64,000 nt of DNA from Yersinia kristensenii. GTDB taxonomy: Bacteria > Pseudomonadota > Gammaproteobacteria > Enterobacterales > Enterobacteriaceae. The stretch is from positions 4,464,001-4,528,000 of the forward strand of contig NZ_UHIY01000001.1 in assembly GCF_900460525.1 (NCBI RefSeq). The letters are read 5' to 3'. Positions 8,535-57,189 of the stretch are shown here, in pieces. Positions within the stretch are counted from its first letter, which is position 1, and each line of letters begins with the position of its first letter. Under the pieces are notes generated by a model. It made no database searches. It was not told the origin of the DNA and saw only the letters and a program-made list of their open reading frames with translations. Made by a program: the position numbers and the translations under genes.

Positions 8535-8674
8535 TCCCCAAAGTTATTGGAGTTGCAGGTAGGCGGCAAGCGAATAAATCCCGATAAGCTTATTGACTGT
8601 AAGGTCAACGACTAGTCAGTGATTCGGGTGTATGAGCGTAACCAACAACCCTGCGGCTTCAAGGACGAAGGATG
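8535..8674. repeat. ERIC element, tandem copy 1 (ackA-pta)
   Basis: Begins TCCCCAAAG and ends GGCTTCAAGGACGAAGGATG, with a central arm GGTCAACGACTAGTCAGTGATTCGGG. It differs from the next copy at only a few positions (for example ATAAGC versus ATGAGC, TATGAGCGTAACC versus CATGAGCGTAGCC). Confidence 0.88.
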
Positions 8675-8813
8675 TCCCCAAAGTCATTGGAGTTGCAGGT
8701 AGGCGGCAAGCGAATAAATCCCGATGAGCTTATTGACTGTAAGGTCAACGACTAGTCAGTGATTCGGGTGCATGAGCGTAGCCAACAACCCTGCGGCTTC
8801 AAGGACGAAGGGC
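8675..8813. repeat. ERIC element, tandem copy 2 (ackA-pta)
   Basis: Directly abuts copy 1 with a 140-base period. The near identity of the two copies points to a recent tandem duplication and not to two independent insertions. It ends 23 bases before the pta start. Confidence 0.88.
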
Positions 8814-15648: not shown

Positions 15649-15896
15649 GATATCGTCTTCTCTTAGGTCTACTCTCAGTAAATCAGGTGGCACCGACCAC
15701 CGATATACATAGTGAGAACTGAATAAGGCTTCATTCTATCATCCAATCAGTCAGATTAATCCGAGAAAAGCCACGATCCACCATAAGAAAATTTTATCGT
15801 AAAAAACTTTTATCGTAAAAAACTGTTATTGTAAAAAACAATGCCAACATGAAAGAGTACTGTCAGCGTTGTATGGGATCAAAAGGGGGAAGATCG

Positions 15897-36567: not shown

Positions 36568-37068
36568 TTAGAAGGAGGCCAACCATAGGCGCAGTTTCAT
36601 TCCCCAATAGCTGGTCCAACCGCTCGTGTGTTGCACCATTTTCCCTTGATAGAGGATAACCACTGTCGGCGTGACATTAATTTGCCACTGGGCTGATAAT
36701 TGCCCTTGTGGGTCATTTATCACCGGCAGTTGATAGCCTTTTTTGCGTAACCAAGTCTCAACTTGCGCGGGATCTCCTGACCTTAGCGCCACCGTCAGGA
36801 CATTTTCACCCTCTTGCACTAACTGATTGACACTGGGTGTGGTGAATTTGCATACACCGCACCATGTCGCCCAGAAATAGATAAGCAGCGGTTTTTCCTG
36901 ACTCATCTCCTGCAAGGAAACCGTCTTTCCCGCCAGCGTTTGCCATGGCGTATCCGGCCAGTCGGCTGGTGCTTGCGGGCTACGCAGCCAATCCATAGCA
37001 AATGAAACCACCACCGCCAGCAGCACTAAAACCAGCAATTCCTTGCTCCAGCGCTTTAAGCGATTCAT
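36568..37068 (-). CDS. scsD: ScsD, membrane-anchored TlpA-type thioredoxin
   Basis: A 166-residue protein with an N-terminal membrane anchor (LLVLVLLAVVVSFAMDWL) and a periplasmic thioredoxin domain of the TlpA/ResA type. The redox motif is WATWCGVCKFTTPS (CGVC), and the cis-proline is in INVTPTVVIL. In Salmonella, ScsD belongs to the suppressor of copper sensitivity locus and probably receives electrons from ScsB. Last gene of scsABCD, overlapping scsC as ATGA. Confidence 0.9.
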   Translation of the reverse strand: MNRLKRWSKELLVLVLLAVVVSFAMDWLRSPQAPADWPDTPWQTLAGKTVSLQEMSQEKPLLIYFWATWCGVCKFTTPSVNQLVQEGENVLTVALRSGDPAQVETWLRKKGYQLPVINDPQGQLSAQWQINVTPTVVILYQGKMVQHTSGWTSYWGMKLRLWLASF

Positions 37069-37808
37069 TTACCCGCCTGCGCCAATTGTTGTTTCACTAT
37101 TTCCTCCAGTTCTTGATAGGAAATTGCCCCCGGAATCATTTGATCACCAATCAAGGTGGCCGGTGTGCCCTGAATACCCAGTTGCTCAGCCAGCTTCAGG
37201 TTGGAACGCAGCACATTTAAGCTTTGCTCACTCGCCTCCACTGCCGTCACCCCGGTTTTTTTCTGTGCGGCGGCAATACTGCTGGCATCATGGAGGCCCT
37301 TTTTCGCCATCAAACGCTGATGAAAAGCCATCCATTGGTCAGGATGCTGTTGCCACAGCGTTAATGCCAATCGTGCACTGGTCACCGAACTTTCCCCTTT
37401 GAATGGCAATGGTTTTATCACCACCGCCACCTGTGGGTAGTCTTTGACTAACTTCTCCAGCAAGGGGTCAAATGTCTTGCAGAATGGGCAATTGTAGTCG
37501 GTGAAAGAAACCAAAGTCAGTTGCGGTGTGGTCGCGCCAAAACGCGGGCTACCGGGGTCTTGATATAGGGCTTGTTTATTCGCGGCGATAAACTGGCTCA
37601 GTTGTTGCCCCTGTGCTTCATTGGCTTGCTGCTGCCAGGCGTTGACCGATTGCTCCAGGATATCTGGATTAGATATTAATGTTTCGCGGATCAGCTCTTT
37701 AATGCGGACTTCCTGTTCTGGGGTGAAGGGGGTCGCCGCCCAGAGAGGCGTCGAAAACAGCACCAACAGTAATACAGTCAATTTTCTCATTACAATCAAC
37801 AGACTCAT
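37065..37808 (-). CDS. scsC: ScsC, periplasmic DsbA/DsbG-like thiol oxidoreductase
   Basis: A 247-residue secreted protein: signal peptide around MRKLTVLLLVLFSTPLWA, an N-terminal helical trimerisation-like stalk (TPEQEVRIKELIRETLISNPDILEQS), and a thioredoxin fold with an inserted helical domain. The active site is FTDYNCPFCKTFDPL (CPFC) and the cis-Pro loop is QGTPATLIGDQ. Relatives bind copper and, depending on oligomeric state, isomerise or reduce disulphides; ScsB keeps them reduced. Two possible ATG starts exist; the first makes an ATGA overlap with scsB and is used. Confidence 0.9.
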   Translation of the reverse strand: MSLLIVMRKLTVLLLVLFSTPLWAATPFTPEQEVRIKELIRETLISNPDILEQSVNAWQQQANEAQGQQLSQFIAANKQALYQDPGSPRFGATTPQLTLVSFTDYNCPFCKTFDPLLEKLVKDYPQVAVVIKPLPFKGESSVTSARLALTLWQQHPDQWMAFHQRLMAKKGLHDASSIAAAQKKTGVTAVEASEQSLNVLRSNLKLAEQLGIQGTPATLIGDQMIPGAISYQELEEIVKQQLAQAGK

Positions 37809-39865
37809 TTTTCATTTCCTTTAGCATCGGCCAACACTTTCAATAGAACGTCACGATCCAGCAGTGGAGAAAGCACGACTCCCTGCGGCTGCTGTGGCCC
37901 ATAAATTTGATTGAACGGAATGGCAACACTGCCGCGTTCGCGTAAAAAGGCGGTGATATTCGCAGAAGGACGTGTCCAGTCGCCGCGTAACGCCACCACG
38001 TCCGGCGCTTGCAAAGCTTGTTGCACATCATCGCGCATCAGCACGTGTATTTTGTTGACTTTGCAAGTCACACACCAATCTGCGGTGACATCAACAAACA
38101 CTCTTTTATCTTCGGCGAGTGCCTTTTGAATGGCGGATTCGGTTAACGGCTGCCACGGAATATTGTCATGCAGCGGCTTGCGCCATAAATCGGCGGTGAG
38201 CGCCCCTGCCAGTAGCAATCCTCCGACAATCAGCACCGCGATTAAACTGACTATCGCGGCGATGCGAGTGCCGTAACGCCAGCCAATCGCCAGTAGCAGC
38301 GCCAGCAAGACTATTCCGGCGATGATAATGACGGCTTGTAGGCCGATATGGCTGACCATCAAGCTCAAGAGCCACAGACTGGACACCAACATCAGCACCC
38401 CCATGGCGATGCGCAGATGGTTCATCCAACGACCGGGGCGCGGTAAGCACAATGCCAGTTTGGGCCACGCGGCCACCGCCAACCACGGCAAGCTCATCCC
38501 GACACCGAGCGCAGTTAATATCCCCCATAGCGCGGGTAACGGGGCCGCCAGTGCAAAAGCCACTGCCGTGCCGAGGAAGGGAGCAGAGCACGGTGTTGCC
38601 AGTAAAGTCGCCAGAGCACCTTGCCCAAAGTGACCAACCATGCCGCGTGCGCCCGGTTTCTCGACGCGCGGGGCGGCGATACGGGTATTTAGCGACGAAG
38701 AGAGCTGAATCTCGAACAATCCGAACAGATTGGCGGTAAAAAGTGCGGTGACGACGACCATAAAACCGATGAACCACGGATTTTGGAACTGAATCCCCCA
38801 GCCAAGCGCATGGTTGCCCAGACGCAAAGCAGTCATCAGCAAAGCCAGTAACCAAAATGAGGTGATTATTCCGGCAGATGAAGCCAAAAACTGCCACCGC
38901 ACCTGACGGCGAGTTTGCTGCTCGGTTTGCAGAATCGAACTCAGCTTCATTGCCAATACTGGCAGCACACATGGCATCAGGTTAAGGATTAATCCCCCCG
39001 CCAGCGCCATCAGAACCCAAGACCAAAATGAGGCATTGGATTGCGGTAACGTCAGCGCTTGCCCGATAGTCACCGTGGCCTCTTGCGCCAGCCCGCCATC
39101 CGTCAGCACCAGAGTCAATGGCTTGCCGCGCAGGTCTCCCACGCTCTCCCCCCAACCATCTGTGGCGGGTACCCGCACCGACAATTGATTACCCTGCACA
39201 GTGACGATAGGCTTGCCAAGATCGACATCTTCCAGAGTATCGAAGAACAACTCTGGCTTCTGCCAACCCTCATCACGCTGAGCAAGGATTTGCACTTCTC
39301 CTTGACTAAAACCGGCCTGAATATGCGGAGTCAACGCATTGGCAATCGGTACCTGCCCCATCGCTTGGGCAAAATCGTGTTCGAACTGCTGCTGATTTTC
39401 CGCGCTGACGGCAGAGGACAAATCGAGGCTAAAGGGATAGTCGGTCAAAATACAGACATTACTGCAGGTCGACAGAGTCAGTATTCCACTTAATGTGTTG
39501 GGAACCTTGCCGGAAATTACGATCGGTAGGTTGACCTGCTCATGATATCCCTGAGTAGAAATCCCAGACACATCAAAACGTTGGGGTACCGGCCAGTACC
39601 ATTTTACAGCCTCGAGCGGCGCAGACCAGGCAATGGTGGGTGCAATGCCCCCTTCTCCCGGCGAGCGCCAATAGGTTTTCCAACCTTTTGCCAACTGGAC
39701 GCTAAGTAACATGCGGGTTTCATTGCCAGCAGAAGGCTCGGCACGAACTCGAACCTTGGCATGGTCATTTTGCGCACTGACCAACCAGCCGCTATCTGCC
39801 GCCCAAAGGGTAGGCATCCAGAGCAGCAACAGACAGAACAAAGCTGTCTTGCTTAAATTGAGCAT
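37805..39865 (-). CDS. scsB: ScsB, DsbD-type membrane thiol reductase
   Basis: A 686-residue electron shuttle that moves reducing power from cytoplasmic thioredoxin to ScsC in the periplasm. Order: signal peptide (ALFCLLLLWMPTLWA), two periplasmic N-terminal domains (about 25-270; LSTCSNVCILTDYPF carries a cysteine pair), eight-helix membrane domain (about 275-560) with the paired cysteines in LNLMPCVLPVLAMKL and LLATPCSAPFLG, and a C-terminal thioredoxin domain with VTADWCVTCKVNKIHV (CVTC). Matches the Salmonella ScsB layout. Fifty bases after scsA. Confidence 0.92.
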   Translation of the reverse strand: MLNLSKTALFCLLLLWMPTLWAADSGWLVSAQNDHAKVRVRAEPSAGNETRMLLSVQLAKGWKTYWRSPGEGGIAPTIAWSAPLEAVKWYWPVPQRFDVSGISTQGYHEQVNLPIVISGKVPNTLSGILTLSTCSNVCILTDYPFSLDLSSAVSAENQQQFEHDFAQAMGQVPIANALTPHIQAGFSQGEVQILAQRDEGWQKPELFFDTLEDVDLGKPIVTVQGNQLSVRVPATDGWGESVGDLRGKPLTLVLTDGGLAQEATVTIGQALTLPQSNASFWSWVLMALAGGLILNLMPCVLPVLAMKLSSILQTEQQTRRQVRWQFLASSAGIITSFWLLALLMTALRLGNHALGWGIQFQNPWFIGFMVVVTALFTANLFGLFEIQLSSSLNTRIAAPRVEKPGARGMVGHFGQGALATLLATPCSAPFLGTAVAFALAAPLPALWGILTALGVGMSLPWLAVAAWPKLALCLPRPGRWMNHLRIAMGVLMLVSSLWLLSLMVSHIGLQAVIIIAGIVLLALLLAIGWRYGTRIAAIVSLIAVLIVGGLLLAGALTADLWRKPLHDNIPWQPLTESAIQKALAEDKRVFVDVTADWCVTCKVNKIHVLMRDDVQQALQAPDVVALRGDWTRPSANITAFLRERGSVAIPFNQIYGPQQPQGVVLSPLLDRDVLLKVLADAKGNEK

Positions 39866-39915: not shown

Positions 39916-40269
39916 CTATTCCCGGAAAATGCATAATCGCAAATGCACCCTCAAACCACTGGGTGATATGACTCTGGGCGGAGGGAACCGCATACTGGCT
40001 GGTATGATGGGAATCAACAACAGGAGCAATAAGCCCAGAGAGAAAATGGCTAATTCGAACAAAACGGGGGGGGATGCTAGCAAAGATTTAGCACTTAACT
40101 CACAAGAGGTTGGGCCGTCGTTTGCATCGGCAACAACTTGTGATGATGACGTCAAAAGAAGACTTTTTTCCAGCGCGTGCAAGCTGGCGATGCGTTGCGT
40201 CATACAAACCAGTATGACCAGGCAAGCCAGAGAAAGAAACCATTTTGCAGCGCGTTGTCTTTTAAACAT
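39916..40269 (-). CDS. scsA: ScsA-like small membrane protein
   Basis: A 117-residue protein at the head of scsABCD. Two hydrophobic segments are visible, WFLSLACLVILVCMT near the N terminus and VLFELAIFSLGLLLLLLIPIIP in the second half, with a cysteine in GPTSCELSAKS between them. Size and position match Salmonella ScsA, which is reported to help hydrogen peroxide and copper tolerance; its chemistry is unknown. The frame is called from position and size more than from clear identity. The start lies at the end of a 17-bp tandem repeat that duplicates the initiation region; the site before this ATG (ACAGAT) is weak, so coupling from upstream mini-ORFs may matter. Confidence 0.75.
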   Translation of the reverse strand: MFKRQRAAKWFLSLACLVILVCMTQRIASLHALEKSLLLTSSSQVVADANDGPTSCELSAKSLLASPPVLFELAIFSLGLLLLLLIPIIPASMRFPPPRVISPSGLRVHLRLCIFRE

Positions 40270-40331
40270 TATCTGTATTTAAACATTATCCGTATTTGAC
40301 CATTATCCATGCTTAACTATTATCAGCCACG
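40264..40331 (-). repeat. 17-bp tandem repeat carrying chained mini-ORFs upstream of scsA
   Basis: Four units of 17 bases on the plus strand: two nearly identical (AAACATTATCYGTATTT) and two more diverged. On the minus strand each of the first three units carries GATAATG. The ATG at 40303 opens MVKYG and stops at a TAA whose last base is the A of the ATG at 40286; that one opens MFKYR and stops at a TAA whose last base is the A of the scsA ATG at 40269. Confidence 0.8.
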
Positions 40332-40593
40332 AGCTGAATGAGTTATCCCTTAAATGGTTAAATCAGTTCCATTCAAGGTGAGCGCCCATCTTAGCGGCAT
40401 AATTAAGATTATCAATCTTTGAACCTAAACAATCAGTCAAAGTGACATTTAATTACAAAGGCATTTAGCCAAAAACATAATCTGAAGGTATGGGTCGCCC
40501 ACATTTACAGGTATTATACCGGCAACCTGCATCAACCCGCGGGTCACCGATAAATCTTCCACACTGTCGCCCCCACTGCGAAGGACGGGTTAT
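40332..40593. promoter_or_regulatory. Divergent scsA/flk regulatory region
   Basis: No gene here; AT-rich with a small dyad AAGATT-ATC-AATCTT near 40410. The flk ATG follows GAAGGACGGGTTAT. I did not recognise a CpxR or CueR box. Confidence 0.4.
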
Positions 40594-41631
40594 ATGCAAC
40601 CTTTGAACGGCCCAAGTGTTCCTATTGCGAGTGGCAGCAATGTCGCACCGACTAAACTACCCTCTCCGGGCCAAGTGGAAGATAGGGCACTAACCCCGGC
40701 ACAGCGCACCACGCTGGAAAAACTGATTGTGCGGATCATCGCGCTCAGCCCAATAAAATCTGCCGAGATTTGGGCGAGCTTGCGTCACGATTTATCCCTT
40801 AGCAGCACCAGCGATTTACTGGCTCGCCACTTCCAACCGGCAGAGCAATTGCTGCAAACCCGCTTGTCGCAAGCTCAGGAAAACCACGCCAATCACCAAT
40901 TGCGCCAGCAACTCACCGAATTACTGCCCCAAGGTAATAATCGCCAGGCAGTGAGTGATTTTATCCGCCAGCAATTTGGTCATACGGTGTTGAGTCAGTT
41001 AAGCCATGCGGAGCTGCAACAGGTCTTGGTATTACTGCAATCCGGCACGCTGAATATTCCACAACCTCAGTTAACAACCATAACTGACAGGCCATTGTTA
41101 CCCGCGGAGCATCAACATATTCAATCATTGGTGGCGAAACTCAGTGCGGCAACGGGCGAACAACCAGCCAAAATTTGGCAAGCACTATTTGATATGGTGG
41201 GAGTGAAAAGTCATGACCCGCTACCCGCTCGTCATTTTCAGATACTCAGCCAATTTTTACAGGCCAAAGTGGCCCTCAGCCAGCAAACGGCCCCGACATT
41301 AATTAATCTACAAACTGCACTCAAGCAACCCGCCGATGCGCAGGAGCAGCAGCTATTGATTGATTATAGTCTGAATCGCTTCCAGGCCAGCCCCACCACA
41401 CCGCTGACCCAAGCGCAGTTAAACGACATTATTAATGTTCTGTTTACCGCCCGATTAGACCGCGCTAATGCCGCCCAGCGTTTGGCCGAAGATCAAAAAA
41501 CCCTTCAGCCGTTGATTAACCCGCTGATTGCCGCCCTGCCGCAGTCCTTACAACCTTTATTACAGAAGCCATCACTGGCCTTTGTCGCGCTGATTATTGT
41601 TATGGCCTTTTTACTGGCTATCTTTATTTAA
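40594..41631 (+). CDS. flk: Flagella biosynthesis regulator Flk
   Basis: A 345-residue protein collinear with E. coli/Salmonella Flk: Pro/Gln-rich cytoplasmic N terminus, two repeated helical modules (TLEKLIVRIIALSPIKSAEIW and HIQSLVAKLSAATGEQPAKIW; LPQGNNRQAVSDFIRQQFG), and one C-terminal membrane anchor (LAFVALIIVMAFLLAIFI). It is held to the inner membrane facing the cytoplasm. In Salmonella, Flk couples flagellar ring assembly to late gene expression by preventing premature FlgM secretion. In E. coli it lies next to pdxB; here about 8.7 kb of accessory genes separates the two. Confidence 0.92.
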   Translation: MQPLNGPSVPIASGSNVAPTKLPSPGQVEDRALTPAQRTTLEKLIVRIIALSPIKSAEIWASLRHDLSLSSTSDLLARHFQPAEQLLQTRLSQAQENHANHQLRQQLTELLPQGNNRQAVSDFIRQQFGHTVLSQLSHAELQQVLVLLQSGTLNIPQPQLTTITDRPLLPAEHQHIQSLVAKLSAATGEQPAKIWQALFDMVGVKSHDPLPARHFQILSQFLQAKVALSQQTAPTLINLQTALKQPADAQEQQLLIDYSLNRFQASPTTPLTQAQLNDIINVLFTARLDRANAAQRLAEDQKTLQPLINPLIAALPQSLQPLLQKPSLAFVALIIVMAFLLAIFI

Positions 41632-56792: not shown

Positions 56793-57189
56793 GACACCTG
56801 CGGCTTCAAGTACATACGAATCCCCAAAGTCATTGACGTCGCAGGTAGGCAGCAAATGAACAAACCCCGATGAGCTTACACCGGTAAGTGATTCGGGTGC
56901 GTGAGCGCAGCTAACACCCCCTGCGGCTTCAAGAACATGCGAATCCCCAAAGTCATTGACGTCGCAGGTAGGCAGCAAGTGAACAAACCCCGATGAGCTT
57001 ACACCGGTAAGTGATTCGGGTGCGTGAGCGCAGCTAACACCCCCTGCGGCTTCAAGAACATGCGAATCCCCAAAGCCATTGACGTCGCAGGTAGGCAGCA
57101 AGTGAACAAACCCCGATGAGCTTACACCGGTAAGTGATTCGGGTGCGTGAGCGCAGCTAACACCCCCTGCGGCTTCAAGGACGAAGGGG
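56793..57189. repeat. Tandem array of three ERIC copies plus a partial fourth
   Basis: A 123-base unit begins TCCCCAAAG at 56821, 56944 and 57067. The three units differ at very few positions. Before the first, 56793-56820 is an isolated right end (CACCTGCGGCTTCAAG). Each unit carries CGATGAGCTTACACCGGTAAGTGATTCGG as a central hairpin. The last unit runs into the 3' end of yfcL. The array lies between convergent mnmC and yfcL. Confidence 0.9.

What the first reader, a model, noticed from the sequence alone, without database searches (positions are those of the whole stretch)
40264..40331. Chain of overlapping mini-ORFs made by a 17-bp tandem repeat at the start of scsA
On the minus strand the initiation region of scsA is repeated. 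ATG at 40303 reads MVKYG and stops in a TAA that shares its last base with ATG at 40286, which reads MFKYR and stops in a TAA that shares its last base with the scsA ATG at 40269. So two five-codon ORFs are joined to scsA by TAATG junctions, and the repeat period (17, not a multiple of three) is what puts the stop in place. ScsA itself begins MFKR, so the mini-ORFs look like duplicated and frame-shifted copies of its start. Termination-reinitiation could set the expression of the copper/peroxide tolerance operon, or repeat number could vary between strains as a tuning switch. The sequence chain is seen directly; the function is inference.
Basis: partly seen in the sequence, partly recalled or inferred. 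Interest (0 to 1): 0.75.

Follow-up and report, generated by a model that had tools for sequence, protein, structure and literature searches.

The report
Repeated scsA start makes mini-ORF chain
In a Yersinia genome the first few bases of the scsA gene have been copied in tandem just upstream of it, producing tiny overlapping reading frames that may hand ribosomes on to scsA, but related species keep, lose or break these frames freely, so they look more like a tolerated evolutionary accident than a dedicated control switch.

Summary
Two form MVKYG* and MFKYR*, joined to scsA by TAATG. The scsA start is sound and a conserved promoter lies upstream of the array.

Comparison with 23 other Yersinia scsA loci shows a history. 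In 24 of 28 loci outside the genus, and three basal Yersinia, the ATG lies 23-27 nt from the -10. In most Yersinia the leader is longer, partly because the start region (-7 to +10) was duplicated in tandem; unit number is 0-3 between species, and one sister pair differs by exactly 17 nt. A mini-ORF ending on the scsA ATG survives in 8 of 14 array-bearing species; the T of the upstream ATG is among the fastest-changing columns. Three other genes in 1.26 Mb of this genome have duplicated starts, two of them without such a junction.

Best reading: a slippage-made array tolerated because 17 = 5 codons + 2, so a ribosome starting on an intact copy stops exactly at the next start. Coupling is plausible, above all in the window's clade, where scsA has no Shine-Dalgarno match; a dedicated or strain-variable switch is unsupported.

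The parts
40388..40415 (-). predicted scsA promoter, TTGATA-16-TAAGAT; start of transcription expected near 40381 (inference)
   Evidence: TAAGAT in 22 of 24 Yersinia loci (by eye) and within 60 nt of the ATG in 24 of 28 other loci
40358..40372 (-). 4-codon ORF ATGGAACTGATTTAA, apparently lying over the remnant of the ancestral Shine-Dalgarno segment (GGGATTGA in L024)
   Evidence: remnant status is inference from the leader alignment
40304..40320 (-). unit u-3, ATAGTTAAGCATGGATA, degenerate (ATG now ATA)
40269..40310 (-). 13-codon ORF MDNGQIRIMFKYR*, same frame and stop as the second mini-ORF
40286..40303 (-). mini-ORF 1 (MVKYG*), unit u-2 is 40287-40303
40269..40286 (-). mini-ORF 2 (MFKYR*), unit u-1 is 40270-40286; stop shares its last base with the scsA ATG
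39916..40269 (-). scsA, 117 aa, no Pfam or NCBIfam model hit; no Shine-Dalgarno match in the -15..-4 window
   Evidence: named from its place before scsBCD-like genes and from homologues
37805..39865 (-). scsB-like, DsbD-type membrane protein
37065..37808 (-). scsC-like, DsbA domain with ScsC_N
36568..37068 (-). scsD-like thioredoxin-fold protein
40594..41631 (+). flk, divergent neighbour
   Evidence: NF007987

Best explanation
The feature is a short tandem array made by repeated slippage-type duplication of the scsA translation-start region (about -7 to +10: ACGGATA|ATGGTTAAAC). It arose inside Yersinia, in lineages whose leader had already lengthened, and has since gained and lost whole units. 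Because the unit is 5 codons plus TA or TG (17 = 2 mod 3), a copy that keeps its ATG is a five-codon ORF that stops on the next ATG, so a ribosome that starts too early is set down exactly at the next start and finally at scsA. This makes the duplication nearly harmless (a self-coupling duplication), and in the window's clade, where scsA has no Shine-Dalgarno match, the mini-ORFs may now supply part of scsA translation. Shown: array, promoter-like site upstream, unit differences between species, junctions, loss of Shine-Dalgarno complementarity. Inferred: slippage as the cause, translation of the mini-ORFs, reinitiation (about 0.5 for the window species), regulation through it (below 0.1). The odds given to the rivals overlap with this one: the 'no consequence' rival shares the origin and denies only the translation step.
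For: Distance from -10 to ATG: 23-27 nt in 24 of 28 non-Yersinia loci and 27 in three basal Yersinia; 56-58, 74-75, 92, 107 or 118-119 in the 15 other Yersinia loci with the same promoter. Sister loci L008/L009 (tree support 1.0) differ by exactly 17 nt, one unit; L020 has no extra unit where L011/L012, grouped with it (support 0.73), have one. Anti-SD duplex -5.6 to -9.7 kcal/mol in L046-L069, -3.5 to -4.0 in basal Yersinia, +0.3/+0.4 in L001-L003, while ATG 40303 and 40286 score -3.1 and -3.3. 11 of 11 array units that keep ATG end in a stop overlapping the next ATG. Y. thracica (L003) has TGATG in both junctions: both stops changed and stayed stops. The same kind of duplication stands at rsxA (20 bp), a LysR gene (19 bp) and pldB (19 bp) in 1.264 Mb of this genome, so the mutational process is recurrent; the 17-mer itself occurs nowhere else in the genome at up to 2 mismatches. 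Coupling is most efficient at spacings -4 to +3 nt (PMC12548453 section 6).
Against: GGA of the upstream starts lies only 2 nt from ATG, a poor Shine-Dalgarno spacing (recalled), so the mini-ORFs may be as weakly translated as scsA. TTAAA, the G of ATG and one further A in u-1 are almost invariant, which pure neutrality does not predict. Leader length is not a simple ladder of units: L015, L019 and L021 have one unit at 56-58 nt, the same length as L020 with none, so other insertions and deletions took part. Coupled species have a weaker scsA Shine-Dalgarno on average than uncoupled array species, but not significantly (p = 0.15, no correction for kinship). No translation or transcript data.
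Confidence: 0.62

Rival explanations
1. The mini-ORF chain is a selected ribosome-delivery leader: scsA in this clade depends on translation of the mini-ORFs and termination-reinitiation, and may be regulated through them.
For: scsA has no Shine-Dalgarno match in L001-L003; the two-ORF chain is kept in four species including the more distant Y. pekkanenii with different residues (MVKHC*, MIKYG*); the three array differences seen by eye among L001-L003 (one TAC to TAT, two TAA to TGA) all keep the ORFs; iraD ORF27 is a measured precedent (PMC5574718, passages).
Against: Absent in 6 of 14 array species; the T of ATG is one of the two fastest columns of the unit; at rsxA the same kind of duplication shows no conserved junction. 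One of the three differences (TAC to TAT in L002) also creates a further ATG at -24 with a 4-codon ORF that stops before scsA.
Confidence: 0.2
2. Repeat number is a strain-variable tuning switch (contingency locus) for scs expression.
For: Unit number differs 0-3 between species, one sister pair differs by one unit.
Against: Units are imperfect (14/17, 12/17) and few; L001-L003 share the same number at about 96% identity of the region, so the number is stable over species divergence. No strain-level data were available here.
Confidence: 0.05
3. The array works as repeated binding sites: for CsrA on RNA (GGA before each start, about 17 nt apart) or for a DNA-binding protein.
For: ACGGATA/ATGGATA precede the mini-ORF starts; CsrA bridges GGA sites 10-63 nt apart (PMC7652899 passages); CsrA acts through a coupled uORF at iraD (PMC5574718 passages).
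Against: GGA columns of u-1 change 2, 2 and 1 times and GGA is lost in u-1 of 8 of 14 loci: L001-L003, L008, L009, L015, L019, L021 (by eye); the full CsrA consensus with ACA before GGA is not seen by eye; leader folding not better than shuffles (z -0.38); no Rfam match. DNA-protein binding was not tested.
Confidence: 0.06
4. Purely neutral repeat with no translational consequence: upstream starts too weak to be used, scsA initiates independently on its A-rich start region.
For: Start-region duplications recur elsewhere; ATG is lost in several lineages; the scsA start region is about as unpaired as in 17 other species (0.50 against 0.49-0.65).
Against: The upstream ATGs sit in almost the same sequence context as the scsA start, so if that works they should too.
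Confidence: 0.3

Closest known systems
Mycobacterial interspersed repetitive units (MIRUs) at gene starts
   Same: Repeat units carrying a small ORF coupled to the start of a gene by overlapping stop and start (PMC12548453 section 11)
   Different: MIRUs are dispersed, apparently mobile elements that insert at start codons with a -4 nt spacing; here the unit is 17 bp, a copy of the gene's own start, at a single locus, with -1 overlap
iraD ORF27 leader ORF of Escherichia coli
   Same: Short upstream ORF whose stop overlaps the gene start (PMC5574718, passages)
   Different: One 27-codon ORF with its own Shine-Dalgarno and a structure hiding the iraD site; measured; not described as a repeat in the passages seen
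Bicistronic design expression leaders (synthetic)
   Same: Short first cistron delivers ribosomes to the gene start (PMC5995908 and PMC10367133, starts of abstracts in a search listing)
   Different: Engineered, one leader cistron, with a Shine-Dalgarno for the second cistron inside it (recalled)
Bacterial variable-number tandem repeats
   Same: Whole units gained and lost between lineages
   Different: Few, imperfect units; within-species variation not shown

Membership tests
Translational coupling by stop-start overlap | upstream ORF stop within -4 to +3 nt of the downstream start | tested here: met
   TAATG at 40286 and 40269
Translational coupling by stop-start overlap | upstream ORF is translated | not testable with these tools
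   no profiling data
Translational coupling by stop-start overlap | downstream translation depends on upstream translation | not testable with these tools
   needs reporter fusions
Translational coupling by stop-start overlap | junction conserved in relatives | tested here: inconclusive
   8 of 14 array-bearing Yersinia loci
MIRU-like start-site repeat | dispersed repeat present at several places of the genome | tested here: not met
   unit plus next ATG, searched in the whole own genome with up to 2 mismatches, is found only at the two scsA units; the three other duplicated starts found have different units
MIRU-like start-site repeat | unit contains an ORF overlapping the next unit or gene | tested here: met
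   11 of 11 ATG-bearing array units
Phase-variable (contingency) repeat | unit number differs between strains of one species | not testable with these tools
   one genome per species held
Phase-variable (contingency) repeat | many near-identical units | tested here: not met
   2-3 upstream units in the window, 14/17 and 12/17 identical

The most novel reading that the evidence does not exclude
Tandem duplication of a gene's own start region with a period of 2 mod 3 is a self-coupling mutation: it builds a chain of ribosome hand-over ORFs in one step, allowing the gene to lose its Shine-Dalgarno and become dependent on the chain, a natural route to a multi-step reinitiation leader. The scsA locus would show the stages, from 0 to 3 units, in living species.
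Probability: 0.15. Interest if true: 0.7.

Novelty: new variant of a known kind. Interest (0 to 1): 0.36.

Why it matters
If the chain is used, it shows how overlapping leader ORFs can arise in a single ordinary mutation and take over initiation from a Shine-Dalgarno site, and the Yersinia species series makes the steps directly comparable. If it is not used, it is a clean warning that a striking stop-start chain can be a by-product of repeat period and need not mean regulation.

Tried and rejected
RNA structure or a known RNA family in the leader: fold no better than shuffles, no Rfam match up to E = 1. The TAATG pair as a motif: at background level in the genome. Period 2 mod 3 as a general rule for duplicated starts: rejected; of four genes found in 1.264 Mb, scsA (17 bp) and rsxA (20 bp) have a stop-start junction, the two 19-bp cases overlap the gene by 8 and 14 nt, and among the 6 rsxA loci with the duplication the junction is special to the window genome (by eye). 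Start-region duplications being special to this genome: not shown. With the same screen 800 kb of a non-Yersinia genome (G040) gave 3 hits and 400 kb of another Yersinia (G014) 1; none was inspected, and one of G040 (L167:10295) is as strong as rsxA, so the rates are similar. G000 gave 6 rows in that screen: 2 are one gene (pldB) and 1 (window 38322 +, inside scsB on the other strand) I dropped. The wider screen listed many more rows, mostly in-frame repeats inside genes; I set aside the rows that one search's stricter screen did not return. Significance of weaker Shine-Dalgarno in coupled species: p = 0.15. A strain-level copy-number test could not be made. Literature: no title on this leader in the listings, and no paper; open-licence papers only, listings capped. 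The paper on CpxR control of scsABCD in Salmonella (Lopez 2018) is known only from a reference list.

Corrections made by eye or recount: the automatic -10 call misplaced L015 (15 for 58) and L070 (25 for 41; recounted); L015's MIKQR* ORF was therefore missing and is counted. L010, whose leader I do not count as array, also has an ATG at -17, and its ORF runs 28 codons into scsA, so it would be a counterexample (11 of 12) if it were counted. In L003 the TGATG change also makes an in-frame ATG one codon before the scsA start.

Full report
OBSERVATION. On the minus strand the bases upstream of scsA read, in 17-mers, ATAGTTAAGCATGGATA ATGGTCAAATACGGATA ATGTTTAAATACAGATA | ATGTTTAAAAGACAACG. Neighbouring units agree at 12, 14 and 10 of 17 positions. 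TRF reports period 17, 2.8 copies, score 75; 0 of 30 shuffled windows reach that score, though real sequence of this genome has arrays of that score at 8 places in 464 kb, this one included (periods 8-60). Among 20000 shuffled leaders, 14% have some ORF ending at the scsA start and 1.1% a two-step chain (this count tolerates one base either side of the TAATG position). So the chain is unusual but mostly follows from the repeat: a unit beginning ATG, ending TA and 17 long gives TAATG at each joint.

GENE AND PROMOTER. The 117-aa ORF has no family model hit, but lies 50 nt before genes with DsbD, DsbA/ScsC_N and thioredoxin domains, the scsB-C-D order, and has matches in 41 of 149 family genomes searched. 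Of the 28 non-Yersinia loci read, 27 align from residue 1, so the start at 40269 is sound. A promoter-like TTGATA-16-TAAGAT at 40415-40388 is shared: TAAGAT stands in 22 of 24 Yersinia loci (by eye) and close to the ATG in 24 of 28 others. Transcription should therefore start near 40381, upstream of the array (inference).

HISTORY. All 25 genomes of the genus held matched the query region; 24 have scsA there and one (G022, locus L025) gave no scsA hit at that locus. In 24 of 28 non-Yersinia loci the ATG is 23-27 nt from the -10 (hexamer variants allowed), with a strong Shine-Dalgarno (duplex -5.6 to -9.7 kcal/mol in these 24, L046-L069); the exceptions are L070-L072 (41-45) and L073 (none found). 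Basal Yersinia L022-L024 also have 27 nt, with -3.5 to -4.0. In the other 15 with the same promoter the distance is 56-58 (L015, L019, L020, L021), 74-75 (L009, L011, L012), 92 (L007, L008), 107 (L004-L006) and 118-119 (L001-L003). Sister species L008 and L009 (tree) differ by exactly 17. L020 has no extra unit; L011 and L012, grouped with it at modest support (0.73), have one. The length is not a pure ladder: L015, L019 and L021 have one unit at 56-58 nt, and the 107 and 118 leaders hold other extra sequence. Six species (L010, L013, L014, L016-L018) have different leaders that I do not count as arrays. The picture is a start region, about -7 to +10, duplicated in tandem and then gained or lost in whole units, in a leader that also changed in other ways. 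Slippage is the natural cause (inference).

ARE THE MINI-ORFS KEPT? Of 14 loci with the array, 8 have an ATG ORF whose stop overlaps the scsA ATG: L001, L002, L003, L005, L007, L008, L011, L015; 6 do not: L004, L006, L009, L012, L019, L021. In L005 the ORF starts at ATGs outside the unit's own start position (-23, -65). Two-step chains are in L001-L003 and Y. pekkanenii L007 (MVKHC*, MIKYG*). All 11 array units that retain ATG end in a stop on the next ATG; L010, outside the array set, has an ATG at -17 whose ORF runs on into scsA. On the tree, the columns of unit u-1 change 1,4,0,5,1,0,0,0,0,2,0,3,2,2,1,1,1 times; the T of ATG is the second most variable and TTAAA nearly fixed. The start codon of the mini-ORF is thus not protected across the genus. 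Y. thracica changed TAATG to TGATG at both joints, keeping stops, which suggests copying between units or selection to keep a stop; I cannot separate them.

TRANSLATION CONTEXT. In L001-L003 the scsA start has no anti-Shine-Dalgarno match (+0.3 to +0.4; +1.5 in the -15 to -4 window), while the window's mini-ORF starts score -3.1 and -3.3, though with GGA too close to ATG. The array is A/T rich, 56% unpaired on average (0.42-0.59 in the others computed), with no special fold. Coupled species have a weaker scsA Shine-Dalgarno than uncoupled ones, but p = 0.15 without correction for kinship. Published work places the best coupling at spacings of -4 to +3 nt (PMC12548453, section 6), which these joints meet.

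IS IT RECURRENT? The 17-mer itself is found nowhere else in the genome at up to 2 mismatches. In 1.264 Mb of the same genome (27%), three other genes have duplicated starts: rsxA (20 bp), a LysR-type regulator (19 bp, three copies counting the gene's own; ORF cut by the end of the stretch) and pldB (19 bp, three copies). At rsxA the window genome has a 7-codon ORF meeting rsxA by ATGA, but of 24 genus loci read only 6 have the duplication, and in the other five the ORF stops early or runs on (by eye). So duplicated starts are an ordinary mutational product, and the coupling joint arises in some and not others. Two control samples (800 kb of G040, 400 kb of G014) gave 3 and 1 uninspected hits, one of them as strong as rsxA, so no excess in this genome is claimed.

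VERDICT. A real tandem duplication of a start region that makes mini-ORFs coupled by virtue of its period. I think the mini-ORFs are translated to some degree and hand ribosomes to scsA in the window's clade at about even odds, and that this is tolerance or compensation, not a regulator. Closest known kinds are MIRU repeats at mycobacterial gene starts (PMC12548453, section 11) and leader ORFs such as iraD ORF27 (PMC5574718, passages). The function of ScsA is not settled; in Salmonella loss of scsA alone raised peroxide sensitivity and scsA did not add to copper tolerance (PMC3672137, passages), so 'copper/peroxide tolerance' holds for the cluster more than for scsA.

Noticed in passing
L089:6339 (-), G000:C1:3556339: rsxA start region duplicated with a 20-bp period; 7-codon ORF MTFWAPQ* meets rsxA by ATGA; duplication in 6 of 24 genus loci, three copies in L140.
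   Followed up: partly
L105:578 (-): LysR-family (YafC-like) gene with three 19-bp copies of its start, also beginning ATGTTTAAA; the second mini-ORF MFKQLNYV* overlaps the gene start by 8 nt.
   Followed up: partly
L111:1892 (-): pldB (lysophospholipase L2) with three 19-bp copies of its start region.
   Followed up: no
window 15784-15839: 16-bp tandem repeat, 3.5 copies, TAAAAAACTTTTATCG.
   Followed up: no
window 8535-8811 and 56797-57179: Two tandem arrays of 140-bp and 123-bp units whose consensus sequences look related, 97-98% matches within each array.
   Followed up: no
L003 / L027 (Y. thracica), flk-scsA spacer: About 111 bp of extra sequence between the flk-side and scsA-side matches, with 14 query bases matched on both sides, as after an insertion with a target duplication.
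   Followed up: no
L010, L014; L013, L016-L018: scsA leaders replaced by unrelated or strongly changed sequence, not counted as arrays.
   Followed up: no
L025 (G022): flk-side sequence present but no scsA hit at this locus; the rest of that genome was not searched with the protein.
   Followed up: no
window 40296-40323 (+): Promoter-like TTGACC-16-TATTAT on the opposite strand within the array, 10 of 12 matches.
   Followed up: no
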